Shown here in pieces: positions 18,245 to 56,806 of a stretch of DNA of 64,000 nt. Made by a program: the position numbers and the translations under genes. A model generated the notes under the pieces. That model made no database searches and was not told where the DNA came from. It worked only from the letters and a program-made list of their open reading frames with translations. Within the stretch, counting starts at the first letter, position 1; each line of letters begins with the position of its first letter. The DNA comes from Sycon ciliatum (lineage: Eukaryota > Porifera > Calcarea > Leucosolenida > Sycettidae): contig NC_088655.1 in assembly GCF_964019385.1 (NCBI RefSeq), positions 7,630,833-7,694,832 on the forward strand. Reading direction: 5' to 3'.

Positions 18245-18935
18245 TTACAACACCGTCACGCATGTCATGCATAAGGGAGTTAACGAATGCGCGGTCAGGG
18301 TGCCTGGCCAGAGCCGACGCAAGCCGATCCAAGTGAACGGGCGTCCAGGGGGACTGTTGGCGCAACGGAACGCCTGCCGGCTAGTTGCCCTGTGCGACAC
18401 TCTCGTGCGCTGTGTCCAGAGACGTTGCAGGTGCTGCATTGGTGAGCGTACGGACAGGGGTTTCGATGACACAAGCCCCGGTTGTACAGTCGACACTGCT
18501 CGGTTGACGAGCGTGCGGCGCCGGGGGCTACCGCGGAGCTGGGCCGAAAGGGCCACACAGCACGGGCATCGAACACGGTAGTGTACAGTGTTTGTGGTGT
18601 CCCAACGACGTGACAGCTGGGACGCGATGCTGTGGCGGAAGGTGCAGTCATACTCCGCAACAGCGGAAAACGTGAATTTCTTGATGGCGTTCAGAATATG
18701 GTGCTGATACGCCAACAGTTCTGCTGCTCTGCGCGGATGCGCATCTAGATGGACGGCTGCGAATATTTTTGATGTCCGAAATGCGCCGGGACATGCGTGG
18801 CTGGGAGGACAGCGTGAATTTTCCGGGTGCATCCTCGCCCAACACCAGAGCGTGGGGGCTTGGCACGTCCGTAACGGTCAGTGGCAGCAGTTGTTGTAAG
18901 TCAACAAATTGGTGCGTTATGGTTTTGTCGATCAC
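18245..18935 (-). pseudogene. DIRS-1 Gag-like protein with zinc-binding region
   Basis: The frame reads the typical DIRS Gag core (AVHLDAHPRRAAELLAYQHH; VAEYDCTFRHSIASQLSRRW) and then, in a second frame, CRLYNRGLCHRNPCPYAHQC followed by CSTCNVSGHSARECR, a C-x5-x-G-x-C/CCHC zinc-binding segment usual in DIRS Gag. An 18-bp gap near 18762, relative to 56902-56925, removes residues before the core. Confidence 0.7.
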
Positions 18936-30364: not shown

Positions 30365-30384
30365 GGAGACTTTGGTGGGGAGGA

Positions 30385-30740: not shown

Positions 30741-31310
30741 CCCAGAGTGCTGTGCAGCCAAGTGCACCTGACACACAAACTAGACCCGTATCTGACCCAC
30801 AGCATAGTGCGCCCCCTCAGCGTGAGCTGTTTGCGCAGCACGGTCTACCCGTTTCGACTTTGCATGCGTCCGGCACGTATACATGCTGCTCAGCCCGCCG
30901 TTCTAACTTTAGATAGTGTGTCGTCTACGCACGAGCTGTTTGCACAGCGCCAAACGCCGGCAGCAGGCCAATTCCAGCACCCTGTCACATACCAGCTGAC
31001 CTTCTCGGCTGCAGGGCAGTTTGTGCCACCAGCAAGAAATGGTCCAGTGCCAGGGCGGACAGTCCAGCTAAATGCGACAGCAGCCCCGTTCGTAGCGACG
31101 CCGGCTACACCTGTGCTGACCCACAGTGACACACCATCTCCCCGGGAACTGTTCCTGCAACAGCAGCTGGAACGCGTGCATTCCGAGCTGGCCATGACGG
31201 AGCAGGCGCTCCACCAGACATCGAGTGAGGGTCCTCCTCAGGCCACCCAACTGAAGGTGCCCCTCCACCACCAGCACCTCCGGAACCACAATTCAGGACC
31301 ACCAACTGCT
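30741..31310 (+). pseudogene. BEL-2 Gag N-terminal region, copy b
   Basis: Parallel to 13110-13658 with a few substitutions and small indels (for example PLSVSCLRSTVYPF). The frame shifts before the capsid part at 31328. Confidence 0.6.
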
Positions 31311-31327
31311 TCCTGGCTCGGCAGACG

Positions 31328-32951: not shown

Positions 32952-32988
32952 GTCAAACTGCGACAATTTCGATGACGGGGATGAAGTA
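32952..32988. mobile_element. Solitary TIR of the 60047-61065 transposon family
   Basis: GTCAAACTGCGACAATTTCG at 32952 continues to GATGAAG (32986) and is followed by TA. It matches the right terminal repeat at 61031-61065 with about three mismatches. The rest of the element is missing. Confidence 0.75.
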
Positions 32989-41464: not shown

Positions 41465-41470
41465 AGCGGA
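41465..41470. repeat. 6-bp target-site duplication, left
   Basis: AGCGGA. The same six bases follow the element at 56801-56806. The uninterrupted copy at 18659-18675 reads CAACAGCGGAAAACGTG with a single AGCGGA. Confidence 0.95.
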
Positions 41471-41931
41471 AGTAGTAAGTGCGGGGCGGGTTCTGGCCCA
41501 CTTTTTGACCTTTGACCTTTGGGCCAAATAAGGCACACTGTGTCGGTCGTGCTTGGTCTGGCCCCGGGACCCCCCCAGAGTTTGACCTTTGACCCCTGGC
41601 ATGCCATAAATGTGCCATAAAGGTTCTTTTCCGTGGCGAACGTGCACTTGTGCACGTTCGGTGCATTCGCACCGGGGAGTAGTAAAATACGTACTATTCC
41701 CTGATTCGCACATCATAGATGTGCATTGCATGCAGCGAATGACATATTGCGCATGCGCGCATACGCACGCGGAGCATGTGACCTTCAGTGGCCCTGCGGA
41801 AAAGACGCAGTGCATCACAAGGTGTACTAGTACACGTGTCATTATACTACTCCCTGATTCGCACTTCGTAGATGTGCAGCAAACAAGTTCACGTTCCGTG
41901 CATTCGTTTTATTCGCACATCGTAGATGTGC
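41471..41931. promoter_or_regulatory. Left terminal region: DR1 motifs and hairpins
   Basis: Two TGACCTTTGACC(T/C) sequences (41506-41518, 41583-41595) are inverse matches to AGGTCAAAGGTCA, the DR1 site of RXR/HNF4/COUP-type nuclear receptors. A GAACGTGCAC-TT-GTGCACGTTC hairpin lies at 41638-41659. Three GCACNTCNTAGATGTGC hairpins follow at 41708-41724, 41861-41877 and 41915-41931, two of them after a repeated CT(A/C)(T/C)TCCCTGATTC phrase. All recur inverted at 56340-56800. Confidence 0.6.
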
Positions 41932-43116
41932 ACTGATTGACAAGTTGCCCATACAGAGCATGCCTAATCGGCTTTTCGATCGAGAATGTTCAAATTCGGC
42001 CATATTATGAGTCCCAAGATCAGAATACGGCTCAACGTAGTACTTGAAGTCACCGTTTCCATTACGTCATGTACATTTACACACACTCTGTTGAAGCACT
42101 GAAACATCGATTTTCGGCGAATTCAACAAGCGAAATTTGAAAATTCGGCGAAAAGATGGGTGATTTCTTCAAAACCACTTTCTTCGGCGAATTTTTCGGC
42201 CGGCCGATTTGGGAAATGCCTACTGTCCATGCAGGTGCATTAGATGCATATTTCTATTTTGATCGGGATACAGTTAGAATCAACCGGCTACGCCCGGAGT
42301 ATCATGCATCAAAAAAGACCATAGGTCTGTGGGAAACACCCTAGTAAAATAAATAAAATAATAATAATAATAATAATAAAACAATTATTGAAGGGGTATC
42401 ACAGTGAAGCAGTGTTGCTACGCACCACAAATCCCCTCTGCACTGTACCGAATTTATACTGGAGAATCCAGAGTGGCCAGCAAAGAGTCACAACCCGCGG
42501 GTATCCAGTCACACTAAGGCATGACCACCATTCCCCACATATTCACTGTAACAAAACACAATACTGTTTACTATAATACACTTTTATTTAAATTGACTTG
42601 GATGAGTCTGTAGAAGAGAACACAATGCACGCACACGCACGCATGCGCAGACACACACACGCACACACGCACACACACACATCTAGGTTATATTGCTATA
42701 CACGTATCTAGGGTTTAGGAAGCACGAGAATATGTCGAAGCACCCACACATACCCCTTCATGCAGTGTACTTCAGTAGCCCAACACATTACGACTGCTCA
42801 GGACCATCACAAAATACATTACGACTGCTATAGCACAGGACCATCACAAAACACTACACACTGTTACTACACTACACACACAGTTACTACACTACGCCTG
42901 TTACAAGTACTTACAAATTATTTTGAAACAAATGGCACATCCTGAAGGCGGCAGCCCCAGACCTTCATACATCATCATCTGTGAAACCAAACATGAGCGC
43001 ACACAAACACTATTAGTGTCACGAACACGAAAGCAGGGTAAGACAAGAGGATACGAAACAAGTAAGTATCGCTATAACGAGGGGGTAAGTATACATGTAA
43101 ACAGAGCAGTGCTTAC
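41932..43116. other. Left arm, unassigned
   Basis: Holds a 62-aa ORF (42156-42344, not recognised), then GGTCTGTGGGAAACACC followed by TAGTAAAATAAATAAAATAA and an (AAT)n run at 42318-42390, resembling the tail of a truncated LINE and repeated at 46614-46660. A CA-rich tract is at 42630-42690. Mirrored at 55155-56339. Confidence 0.4.
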
Positions 43117-43429
43117 TTACAGGGTCCTAATACGCTCTACGGCGTCCTGGAATTCGGACTGCAACAGCAGTCCGACTTGCCGACCCTCCCAGTAACGGGT
43201 TAGATGGGCCGTACCCGTGAGGTGGGCGACCACGGCTGGGCCTCCCACCAGCCTTTCTCCACTGTAAAAACGAAAGAAACCGCAGAAAGCAGAGTGTCTT
43301 AGAGCTCTTTTGTTGGGGGAGAGAGCTAGGAGCACTGCACACTTACCATTTGTCACAATATATGATGAGAAAGAGGCGGCGCTTGACGCACCGCCTCAGG
43401 TGCTGGAATAGGGGTATTACCCCTGACAT
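43117..43429 (-). CDS. Spliced small C2H2 zinc-finger gene, left copy
   Basis: Mirror of 54842-55154. Exon 1 is 43347-43429, the intron 43262-43346, exon 2 43117-43261. Splicing joins one reading frame of 75 codons from ATG to TAA and completes the second Cys codon of a C-x2-C-x12-H-x5-H finger. See the right copy for details. Confidence 0.6.
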
Positions 43430-43721
43430 TCGAACGCTACAGTGACAAGTGAAAGCCATTTGGACTGTAATGATACTGAAGTGAAGGTGTGAACCGCAAA
43501 GCAAGACCTATACCTTCTTCCTGTCGAATTCGCTCCCCAGCTGCATACCGACATCATCCGCTAAAATCCAATCATACCAAGTAACGCAAAGGTCATCTGT
43601 TGACCTTTTGGACTTTTCAACTCTTATCCAAAACCACCAAGAGGAAAAAACCAGGATGAAGAAGACGTCAGTTGTAGAAGCGTTTGTGGAGGAGTTGTTA
43701 CATTATTCTCAGTAAATAGAT

Positions 43722-44774
43722 ATGGCTGATACATTCGGTGTAGACTTGGACGACCGGTCGTGGTCTCTCACCACGGGTCCTTTACTAATAGAAAGGCGGA
43801 CGCCAATAAGAACAGTTGTGGAGTTGGCAGATCAAAACGCGCAGCAAGAAATTTGGCACGTCGATGGTAGACTCCATCGGGAGGACGGACCAGCTCTTGT
43901 TGATAGTAGGGGAGTGTCCGCCTGGTGCTATGGAGGTCGCCTTCATCGCGTTAATGAACCGGCTTGGATAGGACGGGGTAGCATAGAGTACTACCTCAAC
44001 GGCGCCCGTCATAGAGCCGGCGGTCCTGCAGTCAGTTATTATGACGCCACATGCGGTATTCTACGGTGGTATCACCACGGAAGACTCCACAGGTATGATG
44101 GCCCTGCAGTGGAAACATTTTCAGACCTTGGTGAAGACTCTGAGGGGTTCTACCGACACCGCGAAGAGTGGTATTGGAATGGCGTCAGACAAAGGATCGG
44201 CGACGGCCCTGCTCTGACGGAGAGATTTGATGGCGCCTATTTGCTGGAAGCCTGGTATGTCCAAGGGCGTCTACACAGAGTAGACGGACCAGCCAGGATC
44301 ACTCGGAGTGATGATGGTATCACCATCCAGTGGTATTATCACGACCGGCTCCACAGGGAGAATGCGCCAGCCGTGATACGCAGGGAAGGTAACAACCGTG
44401 TACGGGAGTGGTACCGATACAACCTTCGGCATAGGGAAGATGGGCCTGCTTTCATCTCTCAGGAGGAGGAGGGTATCTATCAGTGGTACCTCAACGGGGT
44501 GTATTACGGTGACCACCATCAAGACCAGGCAATACACCCCATGGAGCTGCAGTACATCAATGTAGTGCCTACTAAGGTAGACTCGTCAGCAACAAGTCAT
44601 GAGTCCATTTGTGTGATTTGTCAGGATACCCTGGACCGTCCTCTATCCAAGTTGGAGTGTGGTCATGAATTTCACTTCCACTGTATCAAGGAGTGGATCA
44701 GTTCTGCCCCCAGCCCAACTTGCCCAACCTGCCGCTACTCCATGACTGCTGAGGACTTGGTTGAGTTCTTGTAG
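43722..44774 (+). CDS. LHREDGPA-repeat protein with RING-H2 finger, left copy
   Basis: 350 residues from ATG at 43722. Residues about 40-260 are nine repeats of W-Y-x-x-G-x-L-H-R-x-x-G-P-A (IWHVDGRLHREDGPALVD, RWYHHGRLHRYDGPAVET, AWYVQGRLHRVDGPARIT, EWYRYNLRHREDGPAFIS), a MORN-like repeat common in large DNA viruses of protists and in bacterial YwqK-type proteins. Residues about 295-340 form a RING-H2: CVIC, then CGHEFHFHC and CPTC, with all eight zinc ligands in place. RING-H2 proteins are usually E3 ubiquitin ligases; the repeats would choose the target. That is inference. The right copy differs by one residue (Thr/Ile). Confidence 0.85.
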   Translation: MADTFGVDLDDRSWSLTTGPLLIERRTPIRTVVELADQNAQQEIWHVDGRLHREDGPALVDSRGVSAWCYGGRLHRVNEPAWIGRGSIEYYLNGARHRAGGPAVSYYDATCGILRWYHHGRLHRYDGPAVETFSDLGEDSEGFYRHREEWYWNGVRQRIGDGPALTERFDGAYLLEAWYVQGRLHRVDGPARITRSDDGITIQWYYHDRLHRENAPAVIRREGNNRVREWYRYNLRHREDGPAFISQEEEGIYQWYLNGVYYGDHHQDQAIHPMELQYINVVPTKVDSSATSHESICVICQDTLDRPLSKLECGHEFHFHCIKEWISSAPSPTCPTCRYSMTAEDLVEFL

Positions 44775-44860
44775 TAATACATCACACAGTTGCATGTAGG
44801 CGACTACGAATGACCAGTCATGTGCTACAGACGGACACGGATATGCCACCCTAAGTAGCC

Positions 44861-45085
44861 ATGAGCGGCTATTTGGACAAGGGCAACAAAGCACCCCGTG
44901 GGCGGCCAAGGTTGACACTAGCCACAAGTCTGGTCGCTCAGTTGAATAAGCTGGGTGTGCCCATGAAGACCATGGAAGACCTTTCCAGGTGTTGGCAACA
45001 AGCAGAGGACAAGACAGACTGGAAGAAACTGTGCAGCTCGACACTCGAGGACAAATCAGTATCGGCAGCTACTACACCTTGCTGA
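44861..45085 (+). CDS. Small LINE-derived-looking ORF, left copy
   Basis: 74 codons from ATG, 87 nt after the RING gene. The text RGRPRLTLATSLVAQLNKLG followed by a D-x3-W-x-K-L end resembles the C-terminal tail of some non-LTR retrotransposon ORF2 proteins. It may be a captured fragment rather than a gene. The mirror at 53186-53410 is the same length. Confidence 0.35.
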   Translation: MSGYLDKGNKAPRGRPRLTLATSLVAQLNKLGVPMKTMEDLSRCWQQAEDKTDWKKLCSSTLEDKSVSAATTPC

Positions 45086-45230
45086 TGATGCTCACAAGAC
45101 AGAAGTGGGAAAAACACTGAATTTCTTTATTTAATGCTCAACTACACGAAATGTGTTATTATTATTATACATATTCAACTGTACTCAGTCTGGCTGACTG
45201 CCATTCTCTACCACACATTACCGGACACTG

Positions 45231-46412
45231 TTGTGGGTGTTGTCGTTATCGTCGTCGTTGTTGATGTTGTTGTTGTTGGTTGTTGTCGTCGTTATCGTCG
45301 TCGTTGCTGATTTTGTTGTTGGCTGTTGTTGTCGGTTGTTGTCGGTTGTTGTCGTCGTTTGTTGTTGGATGTTGCTGGTTATTGTTGGTTGTTGTTGGTT
45401 GTTGTTGGGTGTTGTTGTTGGTTGTTGTTGGCTGTTGTCGGTTGTTGTCAGGTGTTGTTGGTTGTTGTTGGTTGTTGTTGTTGTCGGTTGTTGTCGGTTG
45501 TTGGGTGTTGTTGTCGGTTGTTGGGTGTTCTTGTTGGTTGGTGTTGGTTGTTGTTGGTTGTTGTCGGTTGTTGTCCGTTGTTGTCGGCTGTTGCTGGTTG
45601 TTGTTGGTTGTTGTTGTTGGCTGTTGTTGGTTGTTGTTGGATGTTGTTGTCGTTTGTTGTCGGTTGCTAGTTGTTGGTTGTAGTTGGTTGTTGTCGGTTG
45701 TTGTTGGTTGTTGTTGGTTGTTTTCGGCTGTTGTCGGTTGTTGTTGTTTATTGTTGGCTGTTGTTGGTTGTTGTTGGCTGTTGTTTGGTATTGTTGTCGG
45801 TTGTTGCCGGTTGTTGTTTGCTGTTGTTGGTTGTTGTTGCCGGTTGTTGTCGGTTGTTGGGTGTTGTTGTCGGTTGTTGGGTGTTGTTGTTGGTTGGTGT
45901 TGGTTGTTGTTGGTTGTTGTTGGTTGTTGTCCGTTGTTGTCGGTTGTTGTTGGTTGTTGTTGGTTGTTGTTGGCTGTTGTTGGTTGTTGTTGGTTGTTGT
46001 TGTCGGCTGTTGTCGGTTGTTGGTTGTTGTTGTTGGTTGTTGTTGGCTGTAGTTGGTTGTTATCGGTTGTTGTTGGTTGTTGGATGTTGTTGTCGGTTGT
46101 TGTCGGTTGTTGTTGGTTGTTGTTGGTTGTTGTTGGTTGTTGTTGGTTGTTGTTGGCTGTTGTTGGCTGTTGTTGGTTGTTGTCGGTTGTTGTCGGTTGT
46201 TGGGTGTTGTTGTTGGTTGTTGTTGGTTGTTGTTGGTTGTTGTTGGTTGTTGTTGGCTGTTGTTGGCTGTTGTTGGTTGTTGTCGGTTGTTGTCGGTTGT
46301 TGGGTGTTGTTGTTGGTTGTTATTGGTGGTTGTCGGTTGTTGTCGTGGGGTTGGGTGTTGTTGTTGGTTGTTGTTGGTTGTTGTCGGTTGTTGTCGGTTA
46401 TTGTGTTTTAAT
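45231..46412. repeat. GTT-rich minisatellite, left arm
   Basis: About 1.2 kb of GTTGTTGTTG(G/C)(T/C)TGTTGTCGG-type units, with no A-rich interruption. Every frame is open, giving ORFs up to 407 aa made of V, C, G and L that are not proteins. The mirror at 51859-53040 shows no length difference, which is unusual for a repeat of this kind. Confidence 0.95.
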
Positions 46413-46630
46413 CATTATTTTGTTCATTATCCAGGAGGATGTTGCTATGATCCAATACTATTTTTTCGCATATATGAGACAAGTTTGTGTAGCGTTAGTG
46501 TGACGTGGGGTATGCTGATTGGATGTGAGGTGGTGAGAGTATGCTGATTGACCGATAACAATTAGTGGAAGGGATAAAGTAATGCACTGCTTGTGCAGCG
46601 TAACCAAACACATGGTCTGTGGGAAACACC

Positions 46631-46792
46631 TTAGTAAAATAAATAAAATAATAATAACATGAATTGCCACCGGCACTTGAGAGACTCGAGTCTCGCCGCC
46701 TTGTTCAAATCGGACTTGGTAGCTTCGTACTGGAACTTAATCTTCTTCTTTTTGAGGTATGACCGTACAAAAACGCGCTTGGATTTTTTCAT
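46631..46792 (-). CDS. Short basic protein, left copy
   Basis: Mirror of 51479-51640: 53 codons, lysine-rich N-terminal half. Confidence 0.4.
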   Translation of the reverse strand: MKKSKRVFVRSYLKKKKIKFQYEATKSDLNKAARLESLKCRWQFMLLLFYLFY

Positions 46793-46797
46793 TTATT

Positions 46798-47172
46798 TTA
46801 TTTTATTTTTTTCATTGCAACATTTTTAGCAGATGTCCACTCGTGAAACAAAGGTGAATCTGGAACGAATAAATGGGCCATGTCAAAGGCATGACGAGTC
46901 TCGAAGTCTTCACATTCACGATGGAACCTTGTCATGATTGACGCATTCCTTGATGGTGCGCACATGAAATCACCCTGGCTCATCTTTTCCAACTCCATTC
47001 TTTTCACATCCTGCAACCCATACCCTACTAGTATCAGTGGGGACGCTAGAATCAGAAGAGGCAAGGCAGCACTCTTCCGTGGATGTATTACTCGACACAA
47101 CACCACCCATACTTGTTTTCTAGAAGTTTTGACTATAATGATATATTGCAGCAGGAAGTAGTATACAGTCAA
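46798..47172 (-). CDS. Putative small membrane protein, left copy
   Basis: Mirror of 51099-51473. The frame lacks an early ATG; see the right copy. Confidence 0.4.
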   Translation of the reverse strand: MTVYYFLLQYIIIVKTSRKQVWVVLCRVIHPRKSAALPLLILASPLILVGYGLQDVKRMELEKMSQGDFMCAPSRNASIMTRFHRECEDFETRHAFDMAHLFVPDSPLFHEWTSAKNVAMKKIK

Positions 47173-47232
47173 ATAGGATAGGATAAGAATGAATGATCAA
47201 CTGTCTGATAAAGAATGCAGTTCATTAAGGAC

Positions 47233-48003
47233 TTATTGGAAGGTCTCTACCAGCTGATCGTCATGTTGGACGGCGACACTGCATAATGATATGAAGCTCT
47301 CAGTTAGCTGTTTCAGTTCCGTGGTAGAAAGTGTCATGTGTGCGTCCAAAGAACGATGAAAACATCTGGGGTCCACGTTGATGCAGACGATTGGAGCAAC
47401 AGCAAGACGTACCTTCAACGCTTGCTCGTCAATGTCGAGGGAGACTGCCCCGGGGTAGATGAAAACATCTTGTTCCACATCCAGTTCGAACCAACTGGTC
47501 GGGACTAGCTTGCTTTCACCGTTGATGTACACCCGACATTGACCGTAGGACGAACATGATGGGTAGAAGTTGGTCTTGATCTTCTCCACACGTCCTCTTC
47601 GGAGAGTGTCACGGAGCGATGGACAAGTCTTGATCAAGTTCGTAATGATGAACTCAGTGGACTCATTCAGTTCGATGTAAACCTGTCCTTGAGCATCTTT
47701 GCGAGCTGTTGCCGTACTACCACAGGCTGGTAGAGCTCCTGAAGGGAAGTACATCTTATAACCAGGCTTGTAGAAGGATCTACCTGATGACTTGTAGGAC
47801 AGTTGCATGTCCTCCTGAAACCCATCTACCACAATCTGTTTGTGGAGCTTGGTAGGAGCAGGTGACACATAGCGACGCTTAGCGGGTACTGCCTTCGAAG
47901 AGAGCACAACTTGAGGAGGGTCAGCAGGAAGAGCGGAATTCTTCCTCACCCGCCGCTCGTATAGGTTATCCATCTTCCAGGAAGCGAAGGGAGAACAACT
48001 CAT
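47233..48003 (-). CDS. 256-aa protein of unknown fold, left copy
   Basis: Mirror of 50268-51038, apparently identical in sequence, with ATG at 48003 and a TATAAATA box at 48053-48060. See the right copy. Confidence 0.75.
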   Translation of the reverse strand: MSCSPFASWKMDNLYERRVRKNSALPADPPQVVLSSKAVPAKRRYVSPAPTKLHKQIVVDGFQEDMQLSYKSSGRSFYKPGYKMYFPSGALPACGSTATARKDAQGQVYIELNESTEFIITNLIKTCPSLRDTLRRGRVEKIKTNFYPSCSSYGQCRVYINGESKLVPTSWFELDVEQDVFIYPGAVSLDIDEQALKVRLAVAPIVCINVDPRCFHRSLDAHMTLSTTELKQLTESFISLCSVAVQHDDQLVETFQ

Positions 48004-48107
48004 CAGCACTGTATTCGATGAACGAATGACTCGACTACAGGACAACCACCCGTATTTATACAAGGCAGAGACGGAGGCGGGTTGAAGTGATAAAATATGT
48101 GTCAGCT

Positions 48108-48238
48108 AGGTCAACCAATCACCATCAAGCCCGCCAAAAACATTTGACCACTCAGCATTGAGCCCACCAAAAACATTTGACCAACCAGCATCAAACCCAC
48201 CAAAAGCATTTTGTCCAATCAGCGGCATGCCCACCAAA
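48108..48238. promoter_or_regulatory. Tandem CCAAT-type repeats, left copy
   Basis: Mirror of 50033-50163: four imperfect copies of a 41-43-bp unit upstream of the 256-aa gene, with CCAATC/CCAACC cores on this strand. Confidence 0.55.
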
Positions 48239-48246
48239 ATCATATC

Positions 48247-49025
48247 TCATCTTAAAGATTCCTTACATGATACCGCCACTTTAGTGAACTGATACAGTAT
48301 GGAAATAAGATCAGAGTCAAACGTGTGCAAGTTCTGAATCACGTGATCAAGTGAATAGGTTTCCCAACAATAGGCATCAATCAATGATACCATAAGAGAT
48401 GTATCAGATGGAGATAAAATCAGCAAATTCGTACGCAACGTGGACAGTTGAGAAGAAGACACCATCCTGGTCGACTCCATGAGACGCAGTACATATAGGA
48501 GTGGAAAATGCTGAGGAAGAGGTTTCATGATTCGACTGAACCTCAACCATGATACATTGCTACGAGGTAAGTAGGAACGCAGTTTACGTAGTACATCCAC
48601 ATTCGTATCGTATACTATGCAGGATAATGCTATAGCATAGTTTATACTCTTGTACAAACAGGATTTTTTCATCGCAAGTATCTGCTCCCGAAGAGTGTGT
48701 ACGCAAAGCTGATCGGATAAGAGTTCAGTTTTCGAAAGAAAATGCAAAAGATGACGATCCACACCGCTTAACCGCTCATGTACCGCGTAAGGCTTCTTCA
48801 TCAAACTACATCTCCTATGCACATCATCTTCAGGGAAGTAAATCACCGCCATGACAAGTCCACACGAAGAACACACGTATCTTCCTTCATGTAAAACATG
48901 ATCAAGATGTTGACACTGTTTTTCCTCCCCGTATTGCTCTTCTTCTTCTTCTTCTTCTTCTTCATCCTTCTCATGAAGTCTCCTGTCACGACATAAGCAG
49001 GTAAGATCTTAAATTCAGAATCCAT
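48247..49025 (-). pseudogene. TFIIB-like gene, left copy, frameshifted
   Basis: Same gene as 49233-50024, but one base is missing between 48990 and 48991, so the frame is lost after about codon 12, before the zinc ribbon. The acidic tract has eight GAA codons here against twelve. An open frame of about 209 residues (48247-48876) keeps most of the rest, with Ile in place of one Thr. Only the right arm can make the full protein. Confidence 0.75.
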
Positions 49026-49078
49026 CTTCACTCCTCACCAACATCCTCATTATGACACTATATCCAGCATGATATCTA

Positions 49079-49180
49079 CTTTATATAACCAATCCTATCC
49101 CGTGTCGGAGAGGGTATGAGGTCCTCTACCCCAATGGTTGTACCTGATAATTGCCCTGGATAGGATTGGTTATATAAAGT
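49079..49180. promoter_or_regulatory. Central spacer with divergent TATA boxes
   Basis: The arms end at 49100 and 49158. Just inside each lies TATATAAAG (49079-49087 on the minus strand, 49171-49179 on the plus strand), about 62 nt before the TFIIB-like ATG in each arm. The 57-bp spacer between them is the only single-copy DNA in the element and contains a small GGGTA...TACCC stem. It looks like a two-way promoter, and possibly the turn of a hairpin replication intermediate. Confidence 0.6.
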
Positions 49181-49232
49181 AGATATCATGCTGGATATAG
49201 TGTCATAATGAGGATGTTGGTGAAGAGTGAAG

Positions 49233-50024
49233 ATGGATTCTGAATTTAAGATCTTACCTGCTTATGTACGTGACAGGAGACTTCATGAGAAGGATGAAGA
49301 AGAAGAAGAAGAAGAAGAAGAAGAAGAAGAAGAGCAATACGGGGAGGAAAAACAGTGTCAACATCTTGATCATGTTTTACATGAAGGAAGATACGTGTGT
49401 TCTTCGTGTGGACTTGTCATGGCGGTGATTTACTTCCCTGAAGATGATGTGCATAGGAGATGTAGTTTGATGAAGAAGCCTTACGCGGTACATGAGCGGT
49501 TAAGCGGTGTGGATCGTCATCTTTTGCATTTTCTTTCGAAAACTGAACTCTTATCCGATCAGCTTTGCGTACACACTCTTCGGGAGCAGATACTTGCGAT
49601 GAAAAAATCCTGTTTGTACAAGAGTATAAACTATGCTACAGCATTATCCTGCATAGTATACGATACGAATGTGGATGTACTACGTAAACTGCGTTCCTAC
49701 TTACCTCGTAGCAATGTATCATGGTTGAGGTTCAGTCGAATCATGAAACCTCTTCCTCAGCATTTTCCACTCCTATATGTACTGCGTCTCATGGAGTCGA
49801 CCAGGATGGTGTCTTCTTCTCAACTGTCCACGTTGCGTACGAATTTGCTGATTTTATCTCCATCTGATACATCTCTTATGGTATCATTGATTGATGCCTA
49901 TTGTTGGGAAACCTATTCACTTGATCACGTGATTCAGAACTTGCACACGTTTGACTCTGATCTTATTTCCATACTGTATCAGTTCACTAAAGTGGCGGTA
50001 TCATGTAAGGAATCTTTAAGATGA
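49233..50024 (+). CDS. TFIIB-like zinc-ribbon protein, right copy (intact)
   Basis: 263 residues from ATG at 49233 (MDSEFKILPAY). Residues about 20-35 are an acidic run coded by (GAA)12. A TFIIB-like zinc ribbon follows: C-x-H-x2-H ... YVCSSCGLVMAVIY (about 40-65). The remainder is helical, with SINYATALSCIVYDTNVDVL and WLRFSRIMKPL resembling a cyclin-type fold. TFIIB recruits RNA polymerase to promoters, and large DNA viruses encode their own versions. The ribbon is visible; the cyclin part and the role in transcribing this element are inferred. A short upstream frame starts at 49208. It faces the left copy across the central promoter. Confidence 0.65.
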   Translation: MDSEFKILPAYVRDRRLHEKDEEEEEEEEEEEEEQYGEEKQCQHLDHVLHEGRYVCSSCGLVMAVIYFPEDDVHRRCSLMKKPYAVHERLSGVDRHLLHFLSKTELLSDQLCVHTLREQILAMKKSCLYKSINYATALSCIVYDTNVDVLRKLRSYLPRSNVSWLRFSRIMKPLPQHFPLLYVLRLMESTRMVSSSQLSTLRTNLLILSPSDTSLMVSLIDAYCWETYSLDHVIQNLHTFDSDLISILYQFTKVAVSCKESLR

Positions 50025-50032
50025 GATATGAT

Positions 50033-50163
50033 TTTGGTGGGCATGCCGCTGATTGGACAAAATGCTTTTGGTGGGTTTGATGCTGGTTGGTCAAATGTTT
50101 TTGGTGGGCTCAATGCTGAGTGGTCAAATGTTTTTGGCGGGCTTGATGGTGATTGGTTGACCT
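50033..50163. promoter_or_regulatory. Tandem CCAAT-type repeats, right copy
   Basis: Four imperfect 41-43-bp units (TTTTTGGTGGGCTCAATGCT, then GAGTGGTCAAATG), each with an ATTGG or GTTGG core, the inverse of CCAAT. They end about 48 nt before the TATA box of the 256-aa gene. Confidence 0.6.
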
Positions 50164-50210
50164 AGCTGACACATATTTTATCACTTCAACCCGCCTCCGT
50201 CTCTGCCTTG

Positions 50211-50249
50211 TATAAATACGGGTGGTTGTCCTGTAGTCGAGTCATTCGT
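50211..50249 (+). promoter_or_regulatory. TATA box and initiator of the 256-aa gene
   Basis: TATAAATA at 50211-50218 and TCATTC at 50242-50247, placing a start about 31-33 nt downstream of TATA and about 25 nt before the ATG at 50268. A clear RNA polymerase II core promoter layout. Confidence 0.7.
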
Positions 50250-50267
50250 TCATCGAATACAGTGCTG

Positions 50268-51038
50268 ATGAGTTGTTCTCCCTTCGCTTCCTGGAAGATG
50301 GATAACCTATACGAGCGGCGGGTGAGGAAGAATTCCGCTCTTCCTGCTGACCCTCCTCAAGTTGTGCTCTCTTCGAAGGCAGTACCCGCTAAGCGTCGCT
50401 ATGTGTCACCTGCTCCTACCAAGCTCCACAAACAGATTGTGGTAGATGGGTTTCAGGAGGACATGCAACTGTCCTACAAGTCATCAGGTAGATCCTTCTA
50501 CAAGCCTGGTTATAAGATGTACTTCCCTTCAGGAGCTCTACCAGCCTGTGGTAGTACGGCAACAGCTCGCAAAGATGCTCAAGGACAGGTTTACATCGAA
50601 CTGAATGAGTCCACTGAGTTCATCATTACGAACTTGATCAAGACTTGTCCATCGCTCCGTGACACTCTCCGAAGAGGACGTGTGGAGAAGATCAAGACCA
50701 ACTTCTACCCATCATGTTCGTCCTACGGTCAATGTCGGGTGTACATCAACGGTGAAAGCAAGCTAGTCCCGACCAGTTGGTTCGAACTGGATGTGGAACA
50801 AGATGTTTTCATCTACCCCGGGGCAGTCTCCCTCGACATTGACGAGCAAGCGTTGAAGGTACGTCTTGCTGTTGCTCCAATCGTCTGCATCAACGTGGAC
50901 CCCAGATGTTTTCATCGTTCTTTGGACGCACACATGACACTTTCTACCACGGAACTGAAACAGCTAACTGAGAGCTTCATATCATTATGCAGTGTCGCCG
51001 TCCAACATGACGATCAGCTGGTAGAGACCTTCCAATAA
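50268..51038 (+). CDS. 256-aa protein of unknown fold, right copy (intact)
   Basis: ATG at 50268 (MSCSPFASWKMDNLYERRVR) chosen because it follows the TATA/initiator pair; a second ATG is 10 codons later. The first 60 residues are basic and proline-rich, without a signal peptide or membrane segment. From residue 70 the text is beta-rich (FYKPGYKMYFPSGALPACGS; GQVYIELNESTEFIITNLIK; TSWFELDVEQDVFIYPGAVS) with scattered Cys. I do not recognise the family. Its strong promoter and identical preservation in both arms suggest an abundant product such as a structural or DNA-binding protein; this is inference only. Confidence 0.75.
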   Translation: MSCSPFASWKMDNLYERRVRKNSALPADPPQVVLSSKAVPAKRRYVSPAPTKLHKQIVVDGFQEDMQLSYKSSGRSFYKPGYKMYFPSGALPACGSTATARKDAQGQVYIELNESTEFIITNLIKTCPSLRDTLRRGRVEKIKTNFYPSCSSYGQCRVYINGESKLVPTSWFELDVEQDVFIYPGAVSLDIDEQALKVRLAVAPIVCINVDPRCFHRSLDAHMTLSTTELKQLTESFISLCSVAVQHDDQLVETFQ

Positions 51039-51098
51039 GTCCTTAATGAACTGCATTCTTTATCAGACAGTTGATCATTCATTCTTATCCTATCCTAT

Positions 51099-51473
51099 TT
51101 GACTGTATACTACTTCCTGCTGCAATATATCATTATAGTCAAAACTTCTAGAAAACAAGTATGGGTGGTGTTGTGTCGAGTAATACATCCACGGAAGAGT
51201 GCTGCCTTGCCTCTTCTGATTCTAGCGTCCCCACTGATACTAGTAGGGTATGGGTTGCAGGATGTGAAAAGAATGGAGTTGGAAAAGATGAGCCAGGGTG
51301 ATTTCATGTGCGCACCATCAAGGAATGCGTCAATCATGACAAGGTTCCATCGTGAATGTGAAGACTTCGAGACTCGTCATGCCTTTGACATGGCCCATTT
51401 ATTCGTTCCAGATTCACCTTTGTTTCACGAGTGGACATCTGCTAAAAATGTTGCAATGAAAAAAATAAAATAA
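51099..51473 (+). CDS. Putative small membrane protein, right copy
   Basis: Frame of up to 124 codons without an early ATG (first in-frame ATG at 51273). It holds one long hydrophobic stretch, SAALPLLILASPLILVGYGL, then a polar tail rich in His, Phe and Asp. The start may come from an upstream exon, as an acceptor-like ACTTCTAG occurs at 51144-51151. A competing frame starts at ATG 51160. Identical in the left arm. Confidence 0.4.
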   Translation: MTVYYFLLQYIIIVKTSRKQVWVVLCRVIHPRKSAALPLLILASPLILVGYGLQDVKRMELEKMSQGDFMCAPSRNASIMTRFHRECEDFETRHAFDMAHLFVPDSPLFHEWTSAKNVAMKKIK

Positions 51474-51478
51474 AATAA

Positions 51479-51640
51479 ATGAAAAAATCCAAGCGCGTTT
51501 TTGTACGGTCATACCTCAAAAAGAAGAAGATTAAGTTCCAGTACGAAGCTACCAAGTCCGATTTGAACAAGGCGGCGAGACTCGAGTCTCTCAAGTGCCG
51601 GTGGCAATTCATGTTATTATTATTTTATTTATTTTACTAA
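51479..51640 (+). CDS. Short basic protein, right copy
   Basis: ATG 51479, five bases after the previous stop, then 53 codons. The N-terminus is MKKSKRVFVRSYLKKKKIKF, strongly basic; the last residues are hydrophobic and come from the TTATT-rich tail shared with 42340-42390. Not recognised. Confidence 0.4.
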   Translation: MKKSKRVFVRSYLKKKKIKFQYEATKSDLNKAARLESLKCRWQFMLLLFYLFY

Positions 51641-51858
51641 GGTGTTTCCCACAGACCATGTGTTTGGTTACGCTGCACAAGCAGTGCATTACTTTATCCC
51701 TTCCACTAATTGTTATCGGTCAATCAGCATACTCTCACCACCTCACATCCAATCAGCATACCCCACGTCACACTAACGCTACACAAACTTGTCTCATATA
51801 TGCGAAAAAATAGTATTGGATCATAGCAACATCCTCCTGGATAATGAACAAAATAATG

Positions 51859-53040
51859 ATTAAAACACAATAACCGACAACAACCGACAACAACCAACAA
51901 CAACCAACAACAACACCCAACCCCACGACAACAACCGACAACCACCAATAACAACCAACAACAACACCCAACAACCGACAACAACCGACAACAACCAACA
52001 ACAGCCAACAACAGCCAACAACAACCAACAACAACCAACAACAACCAACAACAACCAACAACAACACCCAACAACCGACAACAACCGACAACAACCAACA
52101 ACAGCCAACAACAGCCAACAACAACCAACAACAACCAACAACAACCAACAACAACCAACAACAACCGACAACAACCGACAACAACATCCAACAACCAACA
52201 ACAACCGATAACAACCAACTACAGCCAACAACAACCAACAACAACAACCAACAACCGACAACAGCCGACAACAACAACCAACAACAACCAACAACAGCCA
52301 ACAACAACCAACAACAACCAACAACAACCGACAACAACGGACAACAACCAACAACAACCAACAACAACCAACACCAACCAACAACAACACCCAACAACCG
52401 ACAACAACACCCAACAACCGACAACAACCGGCAACAACAACCAACAACAGCAAACAACAACCGGCAACAACCGACAACAATACCAAACAACAGCCAACAA
52501 CAACCAACAACAGCCAACAATAAACAACAACAACCGACAACAGCCGAAAACAACCAACAACAACCAACAACAACCGACAACAACCAACTACAACCAACAA
52601 CTAGCAACCGACAACAAACGACAACAACATCCAACAACAACCAACAACAGCCAACAACAACAACCAACAACAACCAGCAACAGCCGACAACAACGGACAA
52701 CAACCGACAACAACCAACAACAACCAACACCAACCAACAAGAACACCCAACAACCGACAACAACACCCAACAACCGACAACAACCGACAACAACAACAAC
52801 CAACAACAACCAACAACACCTGACAACAACCGACAACAGCCAACAACAACCAACAACAACACCCAACAACAACCAACAACAACCAACAATAACCAGCAAC
52901 ATCCAACAACAAACGACGACAACAACCGACAACAACCGACAACAACAGCCAACAACAAAATCAGCAACGACGACGATAACGACGACAACAACCAACAACA
53001 ACAACATCAACAACGACGACGATAACGACAACACCCACAA
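51859..53040. repeat. GTT-rich minisatellite, right arm
   Basis: Inverse of 45231-46412 (reads CAACAACAACCAACAACAACC here). Confidence 0.95.
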
Positions 53041-53185
53041 CAGTGTCCGGTAATGTGTGGTAGAGAATGGCAGTCAGCCAGACTGAGTACAGTTGAATAT
53101 GTATAATAATAATAACACATTTCGTGTAGTTGAGCATTAAATAAAGAAATTCAGTGTTTTTCCCACTTCTGTCTTGTGAGCATCA

Positions 53186-53410
53186 TCAGCAAGGTGTAGT
53201 AGCTGCCGATACTGATTTGTCCTCGAGTGTCGAGCTGCACAGTTTCTTCCAGTCTGTCTTGTCCTCTGCTTGTTGCCAACACCTGGAAAGGTCTTCCATG
53301 GTCTTCATGGGCACACCCAGCTTATTCAACTGAGCGACCAGACTTGTGGCTAGTGTCAACCTTGGCCGCCCACGGGGTGCTTTGTTGCCCTTGTCCAAAT
53401 AGCCGCTCAT
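53186..53410 (-). CDS. Small LINE-derived-looking ORF, right copy
   Basis: Mirror of 44861-45085. One substitution lies just upstream of the ATG (53429 versus 44842). Confidence 0.35.
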   Translation of the reverse strand: MSGYLDKGNKAPRGRPRLTLATSLVAQLNKLGVPMKTMEDLSRCWQQAEDKTDWKKLCSSTLEDKSVSAATTPC

Positions 53411-53496
53411 GGCTACTTAGGGTGGCATGTCCGTGTCCGTCTGTAGCACATGACTGGTCATTCGTAGTCGCCTACATGCAACTGTGTGATGTATTA

Positions 53497-54549
53497 CTAC
53501 AAGAACTCAACCAAGTCCTCAGCAGTCATGGAGTAGCGGCAGGTTGGGCAAGTTGGGCTGGGGGCAGAACTGATCCACTCCTTGATACAGTGGAAGTGAA
53601 ATTCATGACCACACTCCAACTTGGATAGAGGACGGTCCAGGGTATCCTGACAAATCACACAAATGGACTCATGACTTATTGCTGACGAGTCTACCTTAGT
53701 AGGCACTACATTGATGTACTGCAGCTCCATGGGGTGTATTGCCTGGTCTTGATGGTGGTCACCGTAATACACCCCGTTGAGGTACCACTGATAGATACCC
53801 TCCTCCTCCTGAGAGATGAAAGCAGGCCCATCTTCCCTATGCCGAAGGTTGTATCGGTACCACTCCCGTACACGGTTGTTACCTTCCCTGCGTATCACGG
53901 CTGGCGCATTCTCCCTGTGGAGCCGGTCGTGATAATACCACTGGATGGTGATACCATCATCACTCCGAGTGATCCTGGCTGGTCCGTCTACTCTGTGTAG
54001 ACGCCCTTGGACATACCAGGCTTCCAGCAAATAGGCGCCATCAAATCTCTCCGTCAGAGCAGGGCCGTCGCCGATCCTTTGTCTGACGCCATTCCAATAC
54101 CACTCTTCGCGGTGTCGGTAGAACCCCTCAGAGTCTTCACCAAGGTCTGAAAATGTTTCCACTGCAGGGCCATCATACCTGTGGAGTCTTCCGTGGTGAT
54201 ACCACCGTAGAATACCGCATGTGGCGTCATAATAACTGACTGCAGGACCGCCGGCTCTATGACGGGCGCCGTTGAGGTAGTACTCTATGCTACCCCGTCC
54301 TATCCAAGCCGGTTCATTAACGCGATGAAGGCGACCTCCATAGCACCAGGCGGACACTCCCCTACTATCAACAAGAGCTGGTCCGTCCTCCCGATGGAGT
54401 CTACCATCGACGTGCCAAATTTCTTGCTGCGCGTTTTGATCTGCCAACTCCACAACTGTTCTTATTGGCGTCCGCCTTTCTATTAGTAAAGGACCCGTGG
54501 TGAGAGACCACGACCGGTCGTCCAAGTCTACACCGAATGTATCAGCCAT
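53497..54549 (-). CDS. LHREDGPA-repeat protein with RING-H2 finger, right copy
   Basis: Mirror of 43722-44774, fully open, with Ile instead of Thr just before the RING (53678). Domain layout as in the left copy. Confidence 0.85.
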   Translation of the reverse strand: MADTFGVDLDDRSWSLTTGPLLIERRTPIRTVVELADQNAQQEIWHVDGRLHREDGPALVDSRGVSAWCYGGRLHRVNEPAWIGRGSIEYYLNGARHRAGGPAVSYYDATCGILRWYHHGRLHRYDGPAVETFSDLGEDSEGFYRHREEWYWNGVRQRIGDGPALTERFDGAYLLEAWYVQGRLHRVDGPARITRSDDGITIQWYYHDRLHRENAPAVIRREGNNRVREWYRYNLRHREDGPAFISQEEEGIYQWYLNGVYYGDHHQDQAIHPMELQYINVVPTKVDSSAISHESICVICQDTLDRPLSKLECGHEFHFHCIKEWISSAPSPTCPTCRYSMTAEDLVEFL

Positions 54550-54841
54550 ATCTATTTACTGAGAATAATGTAACAACTCCTCCACAAACGCTTCTACAAC
54601 TGACGTCTTCTTCATCCTGGTTTTTTCCTCTTGGTGGTTTTGGATAAGAGTTGAAAAGTCCAAAAGGTCAACAGATGACCTTTGCGTTACTTGGTATGAT
54701 TGGATTTTAGCGGATGATGTCGGTATGCAGCTGGGGAGCGAATTCGACAGGAAGAAGGTATAGGTCTTGCTTTGCGGTTCACACCTTCACTTCAGTATCA
54801 TTACAGTCCAAATGGCTTTCACTTGTCACTGTAGCGTTCGA

Positions 54842-55154
54842 ATGTCAGGGGTAATACCCCTATTCCAGCACCTGAGGCGGTGCGTCAAGCGCCGCCTCTT
54901 TCTCATCATATATTGTGACAAATGGTAAGTGTGCAGTGCTCCTAGCTCTCTCCCCCAACAAAAGAGCTCTAAGACACTCTGCTTTCTGCGGTTTCTTTCG
55001 TTTTTACAGTGGAGAAAGGCTGGTGGGAGGCCCAGCCGTGGTCGCCCACCTCACGGGTACGGCCCATCTAACCCGTTACTGGGAGGGTCGGCAAGTCGGA
55101 CTGCTGTTGCAGTCCGAATTCCAGGACGCCGTAGAGCGTATTAGGACCCTGTAA
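54842..55154 (+). CDS. Spliced small C2H2 zinc-finger gene, right copy
   Basis: Exon 1 is 54842-54924 and ends at a GTAAGT donor. The intron 54925-55009 (85 nt) ends GTTTCTTTCGTTTTTACAG. Exon 2 is 55010-55154. The joined frame runs 75 codons from ATG to TAA. The junction completes a C-x2-C-x12-H-x5-H finger whose last part reads AHLTGTAHL, close to the HLxGxxH signature of U1/matrin-type RNA- or DNA-binding fingers. A second GTAAGT donor overlaps the stop, so a further exon is possible, though the nearest acceptor also gives an immediate stop. The fit of splice sites, frame and finger is the evidence; no RNA data are available. Confidence 0.6.
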
Positions 55155-56339
55155 GTAAGCACTGCTCTGTTTACATGTATACTTACCCCCTCGTTATAGC
55201 GATACTTACTTGTTTCGTATCCTCTTGTCTTACCCTGCTTTCGTGTTCGTGACACTAATAGTGTTTGTGTGCGCTCATGTTTGGTTTCACAGATGATGAT
55301 GTATGAAGGTCTGGGGCTGCCGCCTTCAGGATGTGCCATTTGTTTCAAAATTATTTGTAAGTACTTGTAACAGGCGTAGTGTAGTAACTGTGTGTGTAGT
55401 GTAGTAACAGTGTGTAGTGTTTTGTGATGGTCCTGTGCTATAGCAGTCGTAATGTATTTTGTGATGGTCCTGAGCAGTCGTAATGTGTTGGGCTACTGAA
55501 GTACACTGCATGAAGGGGTATGTGTGGGTGCTTCGACATATTCTCGTGCTTCCTAAACCCTAGATACGTGTATAGCAATATAACCTAGATGTGTGTGTGT
55601 GCGTGTGTGCGTGTGTGTGTCTGCGCATGCGTGCGTGTGCGTGCATTGTGTTCTCTTCTACAGACTCATCCAAGTCAATTTAAATAAAAGTGTATTATAG
55701 TAAACAGTATTGTGTTTTGTTACAGTGAATATGTGGGGAATGGTGGTCATGCCTTAGTGTGACTGGATACCCGCGGGTTGTGACTCTTTGCTGGCCACTC
55801 TGGATTCTCCAGTATAAATTCGGTACAGTGCAGAGGGGATTTGTGGTGCGTAGCAACACTGCTTCACTGTGATACCCCTTCAATAATTGTTTTATTATTA
55901 TTATTATTATTATTTTATTTATTTTACTAGGGTGTTTCCCACAGACCTATGGTCTTTTTTGATGCATGATACTCCGGGCGTAGCCGGTTGATTCTAACTG
56001 TATCCCGATCAAAATAGAAATATGCATCTAATGCACCTGCATGGACAGTAGGCATTTCCCAAATCGGCCGGCCGAAAAATTCGCCGAAGAAAGTGGTTTT
56101 GAAGAAATCACCCATCTTTTCGCCGAATTTTCAAATTTCGCTTGTTGAATTCGCCGAAAATCGATGTTTCAGTGCTTCAACAGAGTGTGTGTAAATGTAC
56201 ATGACGTAATGGAAACGGTGACTTCAAGTACTACGTTGAGCCGTATTCTGATCTTGGGACTCATAATATGGCCGAATTTGAACATTCTCGATCGAAAAGC
56301 CGATTAGGCATGCTCTGTATGGGCAACTTGTCAATCAGT
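55155..56339. other. Right arm, unassigned
   Basis: Mirror of 41932-43116. Contains an acceptor-like TTTGGTTTCACAG near 55280-55292, a GT-rich tract near 55590-55645 and the (TTA)n run at 55893-55917. No recognised gene. Confidence 0.4.
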
Positions 56340-56800
56340 GCACATCTACGATGTGCGAATAAAACGAATGCACGGAACGTGAACTTGTTTGCTGCACATC
56401 TACGAAGTGCGAATCAGGGAGTAGTATAATGACACGTGTACTAGTACACCTTGTGATGCACTGCGTCTTTTCCGCAGGGCCACTGAAGGTCACATGCTCC
56501 GCGTGCGTATGCGCGCATGCGCAATATGTCATTCGCTGCATGCAATGCACATCTATGATGTGCGAATCAGGGAATAGTACGTATTTTACTACTCCCCGGT
56601 GCGAATGCACCGAACGTGCACAAGTGCACGTTCGCCACGGAAAAGAACCTTTATGGCACATTTATGGCATGCCAGGGGTCAAAGGTCAAACTCTGGGGGG
56701 GTCCCGGGGCCAGACCAAGCACGACCGACACAGTGTGCCTTATTTGGCCCAAAGGTCAAAGGTCAAAAAGTGGGCCAGAACCCGCCCCGCACTTACTACT
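56340..56800. promoter_or_regulatory. Right terminal region: DR1 motifs and hairpins
   Basis: Inverse of 41471-41931. AGGTCAAAGGTCA lies at 56753-56765 and GGGTCAAAGGTCA at 56676-56688. The three short hairpins lie at 56340-56356, 56394-56410 and 56547-56563. Confidence 0.6.
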
Positions 56801-56806
56801 AGCGGA
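56801..56806. repeat. 6-bp target-site duplication, right
   Basis: AGCGGA, continuing into DIRS-2 sequence AAACGTGAATTTC. Confidence 0.95.

What the first reader, a model, noticed from the sequence alone, without database searches (positions are those of the whole stretch)
41471..56800. A 15.3-kb element that is almost wholly one palindrome, integrated like a Polinton
The 7.63/7.64-kb arms, 57-bp centre, AG...CT ends and exact 6-bp AGCGGA duplication are read directly from the sequence, and the duplicate locus at 18659-18675 is the empty site. Polintons are 15-20 kb with 6-bp duplications, but their inverted repeats are normally hundreds of bp and they carry polymerase B and integrase. Here the inverted repeats are the element, and no replication or packaging gene is recognised. 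It could be a satellite moved by an autonomous Polinton, or a new palindromic virus-like element, perhaps made by head-to-head joining during protein-primed or hairpin replication.
Basis: partly seen in the sequence, partly recalled or inferred. Interest (0 to 1): 0.97.

Follow-up and report, generated by a model that had tools for sequence, protein, structure and literature searches.

The report
Self-palindromic satellite of sponge Polintons
A 15-kb mobile DNA that is one long palindrome turns out to be one of many such copies in an animal genome, probably a passenger that borrows the machinery of virus-like Polinton elements and whose DNA can fold back on itself completely.

Summary
Confirmed: window 41471-56800 is a 15,330-bp inverted repeat (arms 7,630/7,643 bp, 57-bp centre; 99.55% identical to its own reverse complement), flanked by AGCGGA, with a paralogous empty site at 18662. 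It is no one-off: inverted gene pairs mark 80 such loci in the 538-Mb host genome and 3 more were found directly; 16 of 16 checked have exact 6-bp duplications. Conventional Polintons of lineage A (integrase, Bcl-2, protease-like genes) share nearly the same ends but are not palindromic. The inner arm matches the left end of a non-palindromic lineage C Polinton down to the axis. So this is a chimeric, non-autonomous, folded-back Polinton derivative. 16 of 25 centres share one axis, so the palindrome is inherited; yet the two arms of a copy are each other's closest relative in 6 of 6 copies, so they evolve in concert. Inferred mechanism: Polinton proteins act in trans, and the displaced strand snaps into a full-length hairpin that regenerates the terminal origin. 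Host: probably the calcareous sponge Sycon ciliatum or a relative.

The parts
41465..41470 (.). left target-site duplication AGCGGA
56801..56806 (.). right target-site duplication AGCGGA
18662..18667 (.). single AGCGGA at the paralogous empty site in the duplicated flank
41471..49100 (+). left arm of the palindrome (7,630 bp)
49101..49157 (.). 57-bp unpaired centre, read as an asymmetric derivative of the family's common axis; a 57-bp centre with the same break points and one base different occurs in another copy (L039, contig C12)
49158..56800 (-). right arm of the palindrome (7,643 bp)
41471..41954 (+). outer end shared with lineage A Polintons (first 124 bp 95-98% identical at 9 of 10 conventional ends compared, the tenth 87% over 373 bp; stretches of arm 34-484 at 87-90%); mirrored at about 56317-56800
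43722..44774 (+). 350-aa protein with MORN-like WHVDGRLHREDGPA repeats (recalled motif) and a C-terminal RING-H2 finger; mirrored at 53497-54549 (-)
45260..46404 (.). GTT-rich tandem repeat; mirrored at 51867-53011
46116..46585 (+). stretch matching one end of each of the five conventional elements (86-90%) except where an insertion shifts it; in L013 (902-1343) it ends about where the TF gene begins; mirrored at about 51686-52155
46798..47172 (-). orf4, 124 aa, relative in lineage C (66% over 67 aa); mirrored at 51099-51473 (+)
47233..48063 (-). p276, 276 aa, unknown fold; its relatives P0005/P0015 match a frame next to TF in lineage B; mirrored at 50208-51038 (+)
48247..48876 (-). TFIIB-like zinc-ribbon protein (TF), left-arm copy, reading frame interrupted near its 5' end
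49233..50024 (+). TFIIB-like zinc-ribbon protein (TF), right-arm copy, open over 263 aa
48196..49100 (-). inner arm homologous to the left end of lineage C Polinton (L071 5289 to 4344, 79-90% nt in pieces); mirrored at about 49158-50075

Best explanation
It is an integrated copy of a non-autonomous palindromic satellite lineage of Polintons (Mavericks). SHOWN: a multicopy family with Polinton-type ends and 6-bp duplications; no match in the arms to lineage A's integrase, polymerase-like, ATPase-like or presumed capsid genes; outer ends like lineage A; inner arm like the left end of lineage C; palindrome axis about 134 bp inside C's left terminal repeat; one axis shared by most centres compared; arms evolving in concert. 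INFERRED: a recombinant that had lost one terminal repeat folded back at the broken end and thereby gained two identical outer ends. It is now copied in trans by proteins of autonomous Polintons (most likely lineage A) from either end. The displaced strand is self-complementary and snaps into one hairpin whose open end is again a replication origin, so second-strand synthesis needs only one end. Mismatches between the arms are erased in the hairpin or by copying round the tip. The full-length duplex is integrated with a 6-bp duplication by the helper's integrase, and is perhaps packaged in its capsid: palindromes (median 14.6 kb, n = 12) are about as long as lineage A elements (median 15.6 kb, n = 11).
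For:: 5 of 10 fetched end-pairs are palindromes and 5 conventional; 10 of 10 have exact TSDs; 10 of 10 further palindromes have exact TSDs. Of 32 end-pairs picked from the listed places, 12 hold an inverted p276 pair, 2 a single p276, 11 a lineage A integrase, 6 neither (two of those are palindromes), and 1 of 30.8 kb holds both, which I read as two neighbouring elements; 80 loci with inverted RING and/or p276 pairs; one search adds 3; 0 inverted pairs among 30 lineage A integrases, 69 lineage B TF, 42 lineage B integrases and 12 C-like TF, against 24 among 61 palindrome TF hits (TF hits sorted by eye); homology to lineage C down to the axis (innermost 66 nt score 53, best of 300 shuffles 29, lineage A left end 19-20); 16 of 25 centres on one axis; arms sister in 6 of 6 copies (0-0.18% within, 0.13-2.36% to the nearest other copy); equal arm scores in 41 of 56 and 35 of 50 pairs; shuffles average 1.9 and 2.3, maxima 7 and 10; of the lineage A proteins tested only TF matches either arm.
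Against: No extrachromosomal, virion or replication data. Lineage A as helper rests on shared ends alone; B and C have related but different ends. The polymerase-like genes of A and B lack profile support, and the lineage C copy looked at shows no match to them. Concerted evolution could also arise by arm-to-arm gene conversion after integration. Large one-armed changes persist in some copies (a loss in L011, an interruption in L025), so homogenisation is not complete. The arms cannot be traced to one parent: RING has no match in the A, B or C pieces searched, and p276 none in the lineage C copy. Selection on the arm genes is only moderate among recent copies (pN/pS 0.30, 0.53, 0.68, and 1.06 for the RING repeat part).
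Confidence: 0.72

Rival explanations
1. Each palindrome is an independent dead-end copy-back defective genome of a Polinton, integrated by chance, and does not propagate as a palindrome.
For: Fold-back defects are a known by-product of linear DNA viruses (recalled). Two of 25 centres (L029, L030) have a different axis with shorter but still symmetric arms, so new fold-backs or tip losses do happen.
Against: 16 of 25 centres have the same axis and 6 more look like asymmetric deletions at it (sorted by eye; copies chosen for varied spacing). The window's 57-bp centre recurs, with one base different, at another locus (L039). The arms carry RING, p276 and orf4, which match none of the lineage A proteins. 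No single-armed precursor was seen in the 4 of 28 unpaired p276 loci sampled.
Confidence: 0.08
2. An inherited palindrome whose arms are kept identical by host gene conversion after integration, like ampliconic palindromes on sex chromosomes; replication plays no special part.
For: Within-copy arm divergence is 0-0.18% against 0.13-2.36% to the nearest other copy, which conversion would also give.
Against: One-armed losses and interruptions persist (L011, L025; L074-L076). The 417-442-bp terminal repeats of four of five conventional copies are also 97-99.8% identical, without long arms. Copies look recent (many intact frames), so arms may simply have had no time to diverge since insertion.
Confidence: 0.2
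3. Assembly artefact: missed-adapter hairpin reads or a collapsed repeat create false palindromes.
For: Hairpin reads are a known artefact of long-read libraries (recalled).
Against: At least 83 loci; different flanks on the two sides with exact 6-bp TSDs in 16 of 16; arms differ by substitutions; the conventional Polinton genes compared give 0 inverted pairs.
Confidence: 0.02
4. A foldback-type DNA transposon unrelated to Polintons that captured Polinton ends.
For: Very long inverted repeats and few genes.
Against: TF and orf4 have homologues in lineage C, TF also in A and B, and relatives of p276 match lineage B. The ends and TSD length are those of Polintons.
Confidence: 0.02

Closest known systems
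Polinton/Maverick elements (including animal adintovirus-like elements; the latter name recalled)
   Same: AGTAGT...ends, 6-bp target duplication, about 15 kb, TFIIB-like gene, homologous ends in the same genome
   Different: No match in the arms to the lineage A integrase, polymerase-like, ATPase-like or presumed capsid genes; the inverted repeat is the whole element instead of about 0.42 kb as in lineage A
Palindromic defective adenovirus genomes of incomplete particles (Daniell 1976; seen only as a reference entry, content recalled)
   Same: Linear genome with two copies of one end in inverted orientation, derived from a helper genome
   Different: Here a heritable lineage of at least 83 insertions in the host assembly, with its own genes and an axis shared by most centres compared
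Rolling-hairpin and self-complementary genomes (AAV; recalled, search listing only)
   Same: Strand can fold to a full-length duplex; hairpin tip as turn-round point
   Different: Larger, Polinton ends, 6-bp duplication; no Rep match among the Pfam hits of the arm ORFs
Virophages and Polinton-like viruses as satellites (search listings)
   Same: Presumed dependence on a larger or related DNA virus, integration in host genome
   Different: Virophages carry their own capsid and packaging genes (recalled); none is recognised here

Membership tests
Polinton/Maverick (autonomous) | 6-bp target-site duplication | tested here: met
   window, plus 5 of 5 and 10 of 10 other palindromes
Polinton/Maverick (autonomous) | terminal inverted repeats with Polinton ends | tested here: met
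   first 124 bp 95-98% identical to 9 of 10 ends of the five conventional elements compared; integrase lies in all five
Polinton/Maverick (autonomous) | length 15-20 kb (PMC4028283, passage read) | tested here: met
   15,330 bp here; 12 palindromes with an inverted p276 pair have median 14,616, slightly short
Polinton/Maverick (autonomous) | RVE integrase | tested here: not met
   no match of lineage A integrase in the arms, no rve among Pfam hits of the arm ORFs scanned
Polinton/Maverick (autonomous) | protein-primed DNA polymerase B | tested here: not met
   no match of lineage A polymerase-like exons in the arms; caveat: those exons themselves have no profile support
Polinton/Maverick (autonomous) | FtsK-like ATPase, cysteine protease, capsid proteins | tested here: not met
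   lineage A ATPase-like, protease/integrase and presumed capsid ORFs have no match in the arms
Non-autonomous Polinton derivative | same ends and TSD as an integrase-bearing element in the same genome, lacking its enzymes | tested here: met
Non-autonomous Polinton derivative | mobilised in trans by that element | not testable with these tools
   inferred from shared ends and TSD
Self-complementary (snap-back) genome | whole strand self-complementary around one axis | tested here: met
Self-complementary (snap-back) genome | hairpin replication intermediates | not testable with these tools
   no extrachromosomal DNA data
Palindromic defective (copy-back) virus genome | arms colinear with one end of the helper genome | tested here: inconclusive
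   outer parts = lineage A end, inner part = lineage C left end inverted, RING region unplaced

The most novel reading that the evidence does not exclude
A stable lineage of self-complementary satellite viruses: the whole genome is its own panhandle, so one Polinton-type end suffices for replication. Its genes are carried twice and homogenised each cycle, it is packaged and integrated by Polinton relatives, and with its RING/MORN and TFIIB-like proteins it may interfere with those helpers in a sponge germline.
Probability: 0.4. Interest if true: 0.93.

Novelty: new variant of a known kind. Interest (0 to 1): 0.86.

Why it matters
Polintons are candidate ancestors of several DNA virus groups (recalled), yet none of the titles and abstracts listed by my searches describes a parasite of a Polinton with this design (lists capped). 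A palindrome inherited across at least 83 loci, with the two arms sister in every copy put on a tree (6 of 6), may be a natural record of hairpin or panhandle replication. It makes testable how linear protein-primed replicons cope with losing one end, and whether fold-back defective genomes can become heritable parasites of their parents.

Tried and rejected
Assembly artefact: rejected. Independent fold-backs: rejected as the main source. Structure prediction of p276 failed (pLDDT 34). That of TF was poor (pLDDT 53), and its Foldseek search gave nothing at E <= 0.001. Five viral-contig scans with RING, p276, TF, polymerase-like and integrase queries found no relative. Rfam and tRNA scans of the window were empty. 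PHROGs and NCBIfam did not help, and the PDB sequence search did not identify the polymerase-like exon. PF03175 could not be searched in the host genome: every attempt returned busy. Loop orientation (the same apex seen in both senses) was considered as flip-flop evidence and dropped: a palindrome has no other orientation mark, so random insertion gives the same result.
Full report
OBSERVATION. The window element is real and as described: 15,330 bp, arms 7,630 and 7,643 bp, 57-bp centre, AG...CT ends, TSD AGCGGA on both sides and a single AGCGGA at a duplicated empty locus. Between the arms I count five substitutions and two length differences outside the centre.

A FAMILY. The 16-base end occurs 103 times forward and 108 times reverse in the host assembly (538 Mb, 313 contigs; reversed control pattern 0) (only the first places, on contigs C1-C8, were listed). 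I fetched both halves of 10 end-pairs. Five are palindromes (L009/10, L011/12, L023/24, L025/26, L027/28) and five are conventional. In four of those five BLAST shows terminal repeats of 417-442 bp (97-99.8%); L015/16 shows a shorter 90.9% match. 10 of 10 have exact 6-bp TSDs (read by eye). Ten more palindromes, chosen because an inverted p276 pair lies inside their end-pair, also have exact TSDs, 10 of 10. All these were chosen by having intact 16-base ends, so the sample favours well-kept copies.

CENSUS. p276 as query gave 140 scored hits of 459 candidates: 56 head-to-head pairs, 0 tail-to-tail, 28 unpaired. The RING protein gave 116 genes used, one hit per gene from the listed part: 50 inverted pairs, 0 in the opposite sense, 16 unpaired. 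Merged, they mark 80 distinct loci. Three palindromes are not among them, so at least 83. Most of these are inferred from the gene pairs alone and were not read through. Counts are lower bounds because the tool scores only the best candidates. Four of the 28 unpaired p276 loci were looked at, 800 bases each. Three still carry an inverted remnant of the second arm; the fourth (L077) is unclear; none runs into a lineage C terminal repeat within that stretch.

CONVENTIONAL POLINTONS. Lineage A (L013/14 and others) encodes one ORF with RVE integrase (E 1e-10), a chromo-like match (E 2e-4, below its cut-off) and an adenovirus-protease-like stretch (E 4.5e-4, just below its cut-off). It also has a Bcl-2 homologue (E 3e-15), a P-loop protein (weak matches only) and a TFIIB-like zinc ribbon (E 0.08, weak). 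Large ORFs that I take for capsid proteins, and minus-strand exons that I take for polymerase B (motifs recalled), have no profile support, and the one exon tried has no PDB match; all have homologues in lineage B pieces. The lineage A integrase search listed 140 matches; 30 are full length at 98-100% identity, so A was active recently. I used those 30 and 42 lineage B hits in the pairing control and dropped partial, intermediate and N-terminal pieces. The 144 TF matches were sorted by eye into 69 lineage B, 61 palindrome and 12 C-like, two N-terminal pieces dropped; of the C-like ones only L071 was read. The controls give 0 inverted pairs (30, 42, 69 and 12 hits), while the 61 palindrome TF hits form 24 head-to-head pairs.

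ANATOMY AND ORIGIN. From outside to inside each arm reads: a lineage-A-type end (first 124 bp 95-98% identical at 9 of 10 conventional ends), a stretch without long ORFs, the RING/MORN-like gene, a GTT-rich repeat, and a stretch ending about where lineage A's TF gene begins; then orf4, p276 and TF reading outward. TF is 79% identical at protein level and 90% at DNA level (768 bp) to TF of lineage C (L071/L072), orf4 66% over 67 aa; p276 has no match in that copy. The homology to C's left end goes down to the axis: in a copy with the common centre (L041) the innermost 66 nt score 53 against a best of 29 in 300 shuffles. In C this sequence is not palindromic (by eye), and C's terminal repeat starts about 134 bp further out. 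C has its own ends (AGTAGTATAG...) and a 6-bp TSD CAGTGG, read by eye. In lineage B, TF is followed by a frame that matches the p276 relatives P0015 (30% over 241 aa, E 1e-27) and P0005 (26%, E 1e-17), the same gene order; the window's own p276 gave no match there at E <= 1e-4. The element therefore looks like a chimera of A-like and C-like left ends plus a RING gene of unknown source, folded back at the C-like end.

INHERITED CENTRE. Of 25 centres compared (20 fetched, chosen for varied spacing, plus the window, L009, L023, L025, L027), 16 share one axis: an 8-nt apex between CTCTCC and GGAGAG, or a perfect zero-loop form in 5 copies, or small variants. Six, including the window, look like asymmetric losses at that axis. 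Two (L029, L030) have a new axis further out with symmetric arms, and one (L031) gave none. This sorting is by eye. The window's 57-bp form recurs with one base different in L039 on another contig. The palindrome was thus formed once, in the main, and moved as such; fresh fold-back or tip loss also seems to happen.

CONCERTED ARMS. In a tree of 12 arms from 6 copies (some segments missing for some arms), the two arms of each copy are sisters in 6 of 6 (support 87-100; the L009 pair sits at the basal split). Within-copy divergence is 0-0.18%, nearest other copy 0.13-2.36%. Per segment the within-copy values are 0-0.58% and the between-copy means 2.0-3.3%. Arm scores are equal in 41 of 56 p276 pairs (shuffle mean 1.9, max 7) and 35 of 50 RING pairs (mean 2.3, max 10). 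Arms separated since one ancestral palindrome should not pair this way unless homogenised at or after each move. Two routes remain: in the replicating form (snap-back heteroduplex or copying round the tip) or by host gene conversion later. One-armed losses and interruptions that persist, and similarly well-matched short repeats in four of five conventional copies, lean to the first; this is not proof.

HOW IT PROBABLY WORKS. Protein-primed linear replicons displace one strand; terminal repeats let that strand form a panhandle whose duplex end is an origin again (established for adenovirus; recalled). Here the panhandle stem is the entire element, so any displaced strand becomes a hairpin with a working end. 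No polymerase or integrase was recognised in the arms, so these presumably come from elsewhere; lineage A is the best candidate because its ends are nearly identical. Palindromes with an inverted p276 pair and lineage A elements, both taken from the 32 end-pairs and insertions included, have similar total lengths (median 14,616 bp, n = 12, against 15,557 bp, n = 11), as a packaging limit would give, though other causes are possible.

GENES. Among six recent copies pN/pS is 0.30 (RING end), 0.53 (p276), 0.68 (TF) and 1.06 (first RING repeats). p276 relatives at 50-52% identity occur in a JGI contig and in an NCBI contig filed as a Bacteroidota MAG, probably sponge-associated material (the last point is inference). 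A EukProt entry (scpid42763) is 98% identical to p276 over 63% of it. scpid numbers are used for Sycon ciliatum transcriptome sequences in PMC6526912 (passages). So the host is probably that calcareous sponge or a near relative, and p276 is probably transcribed.

LITERATURE. Ten searches of open PMC papers showed no palindromic Polinton in the titles and abstracts listed; the lists were capped (for example 25 of 44, 15 of 63, 12 of 34). Passages were seen in PMC12090768, PMC5033970, PMC4028283 and PMC6526912; everything else was seen as listing only. Most papers of subscription journals, and bioRxiv, are not held.

Noticed in passing
host contig C12:15713184-15731329: Locus with three RING genes (two +, one -) and three p276 genes (two -, one +): an extra arm in tandem with a palindrome, perhaps a rearranged or multimeric insertion.
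   Followed up: no
L013:8112-9581: In lineage A the adenovirus-protease-like stretch and the RVE integrase lie in one open frame; lineage B matches come in the same two blocks within 499-aa frames.
   Followed up: partly
L014:3453-4022: Lineage A Polinton carries a Bcl-2 homologue (E 3e-15).
   Followed up: no
L071/L072: Lineage C copy with capsid-like, ATPase-like and integrase genes shows no match to the polymerase-like exons of lineage A; the integrase is followed within about 200 bp by the terminal repeat.
   Followed up: no
window 43722-44774 and relatives: RING/MORN-like gene differs in repeat number between copies (about 264 or 350 aa open frames).
   Followed up: no
centres L025, L032, L033, L036, L046: Perfect zero-loop palindrome centres, unusual for long-lived chromosomal DNA.
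   Followed up: partly
window 15402-17270 and 25332-33043: A reverse-transcriptase ORF, and a stretch of BEL/Pao-like ORFs (Pao peptidase, DUF1759, DUF5641, integrase zinc finger just below its cut-off).
   Followed up: no
window 4019-5219 and 5516-6716: 1.2-kb direct duplication (99.4%), each copy holding an 88-bp tandem repeat of about 8.6 units.
   Followed up: no
P0015: p276 relative filed under a Bacteroidota MAG on a 2.3-kb contig, probably eukaryotic or viral contamination of the bin.
   Followed up: no
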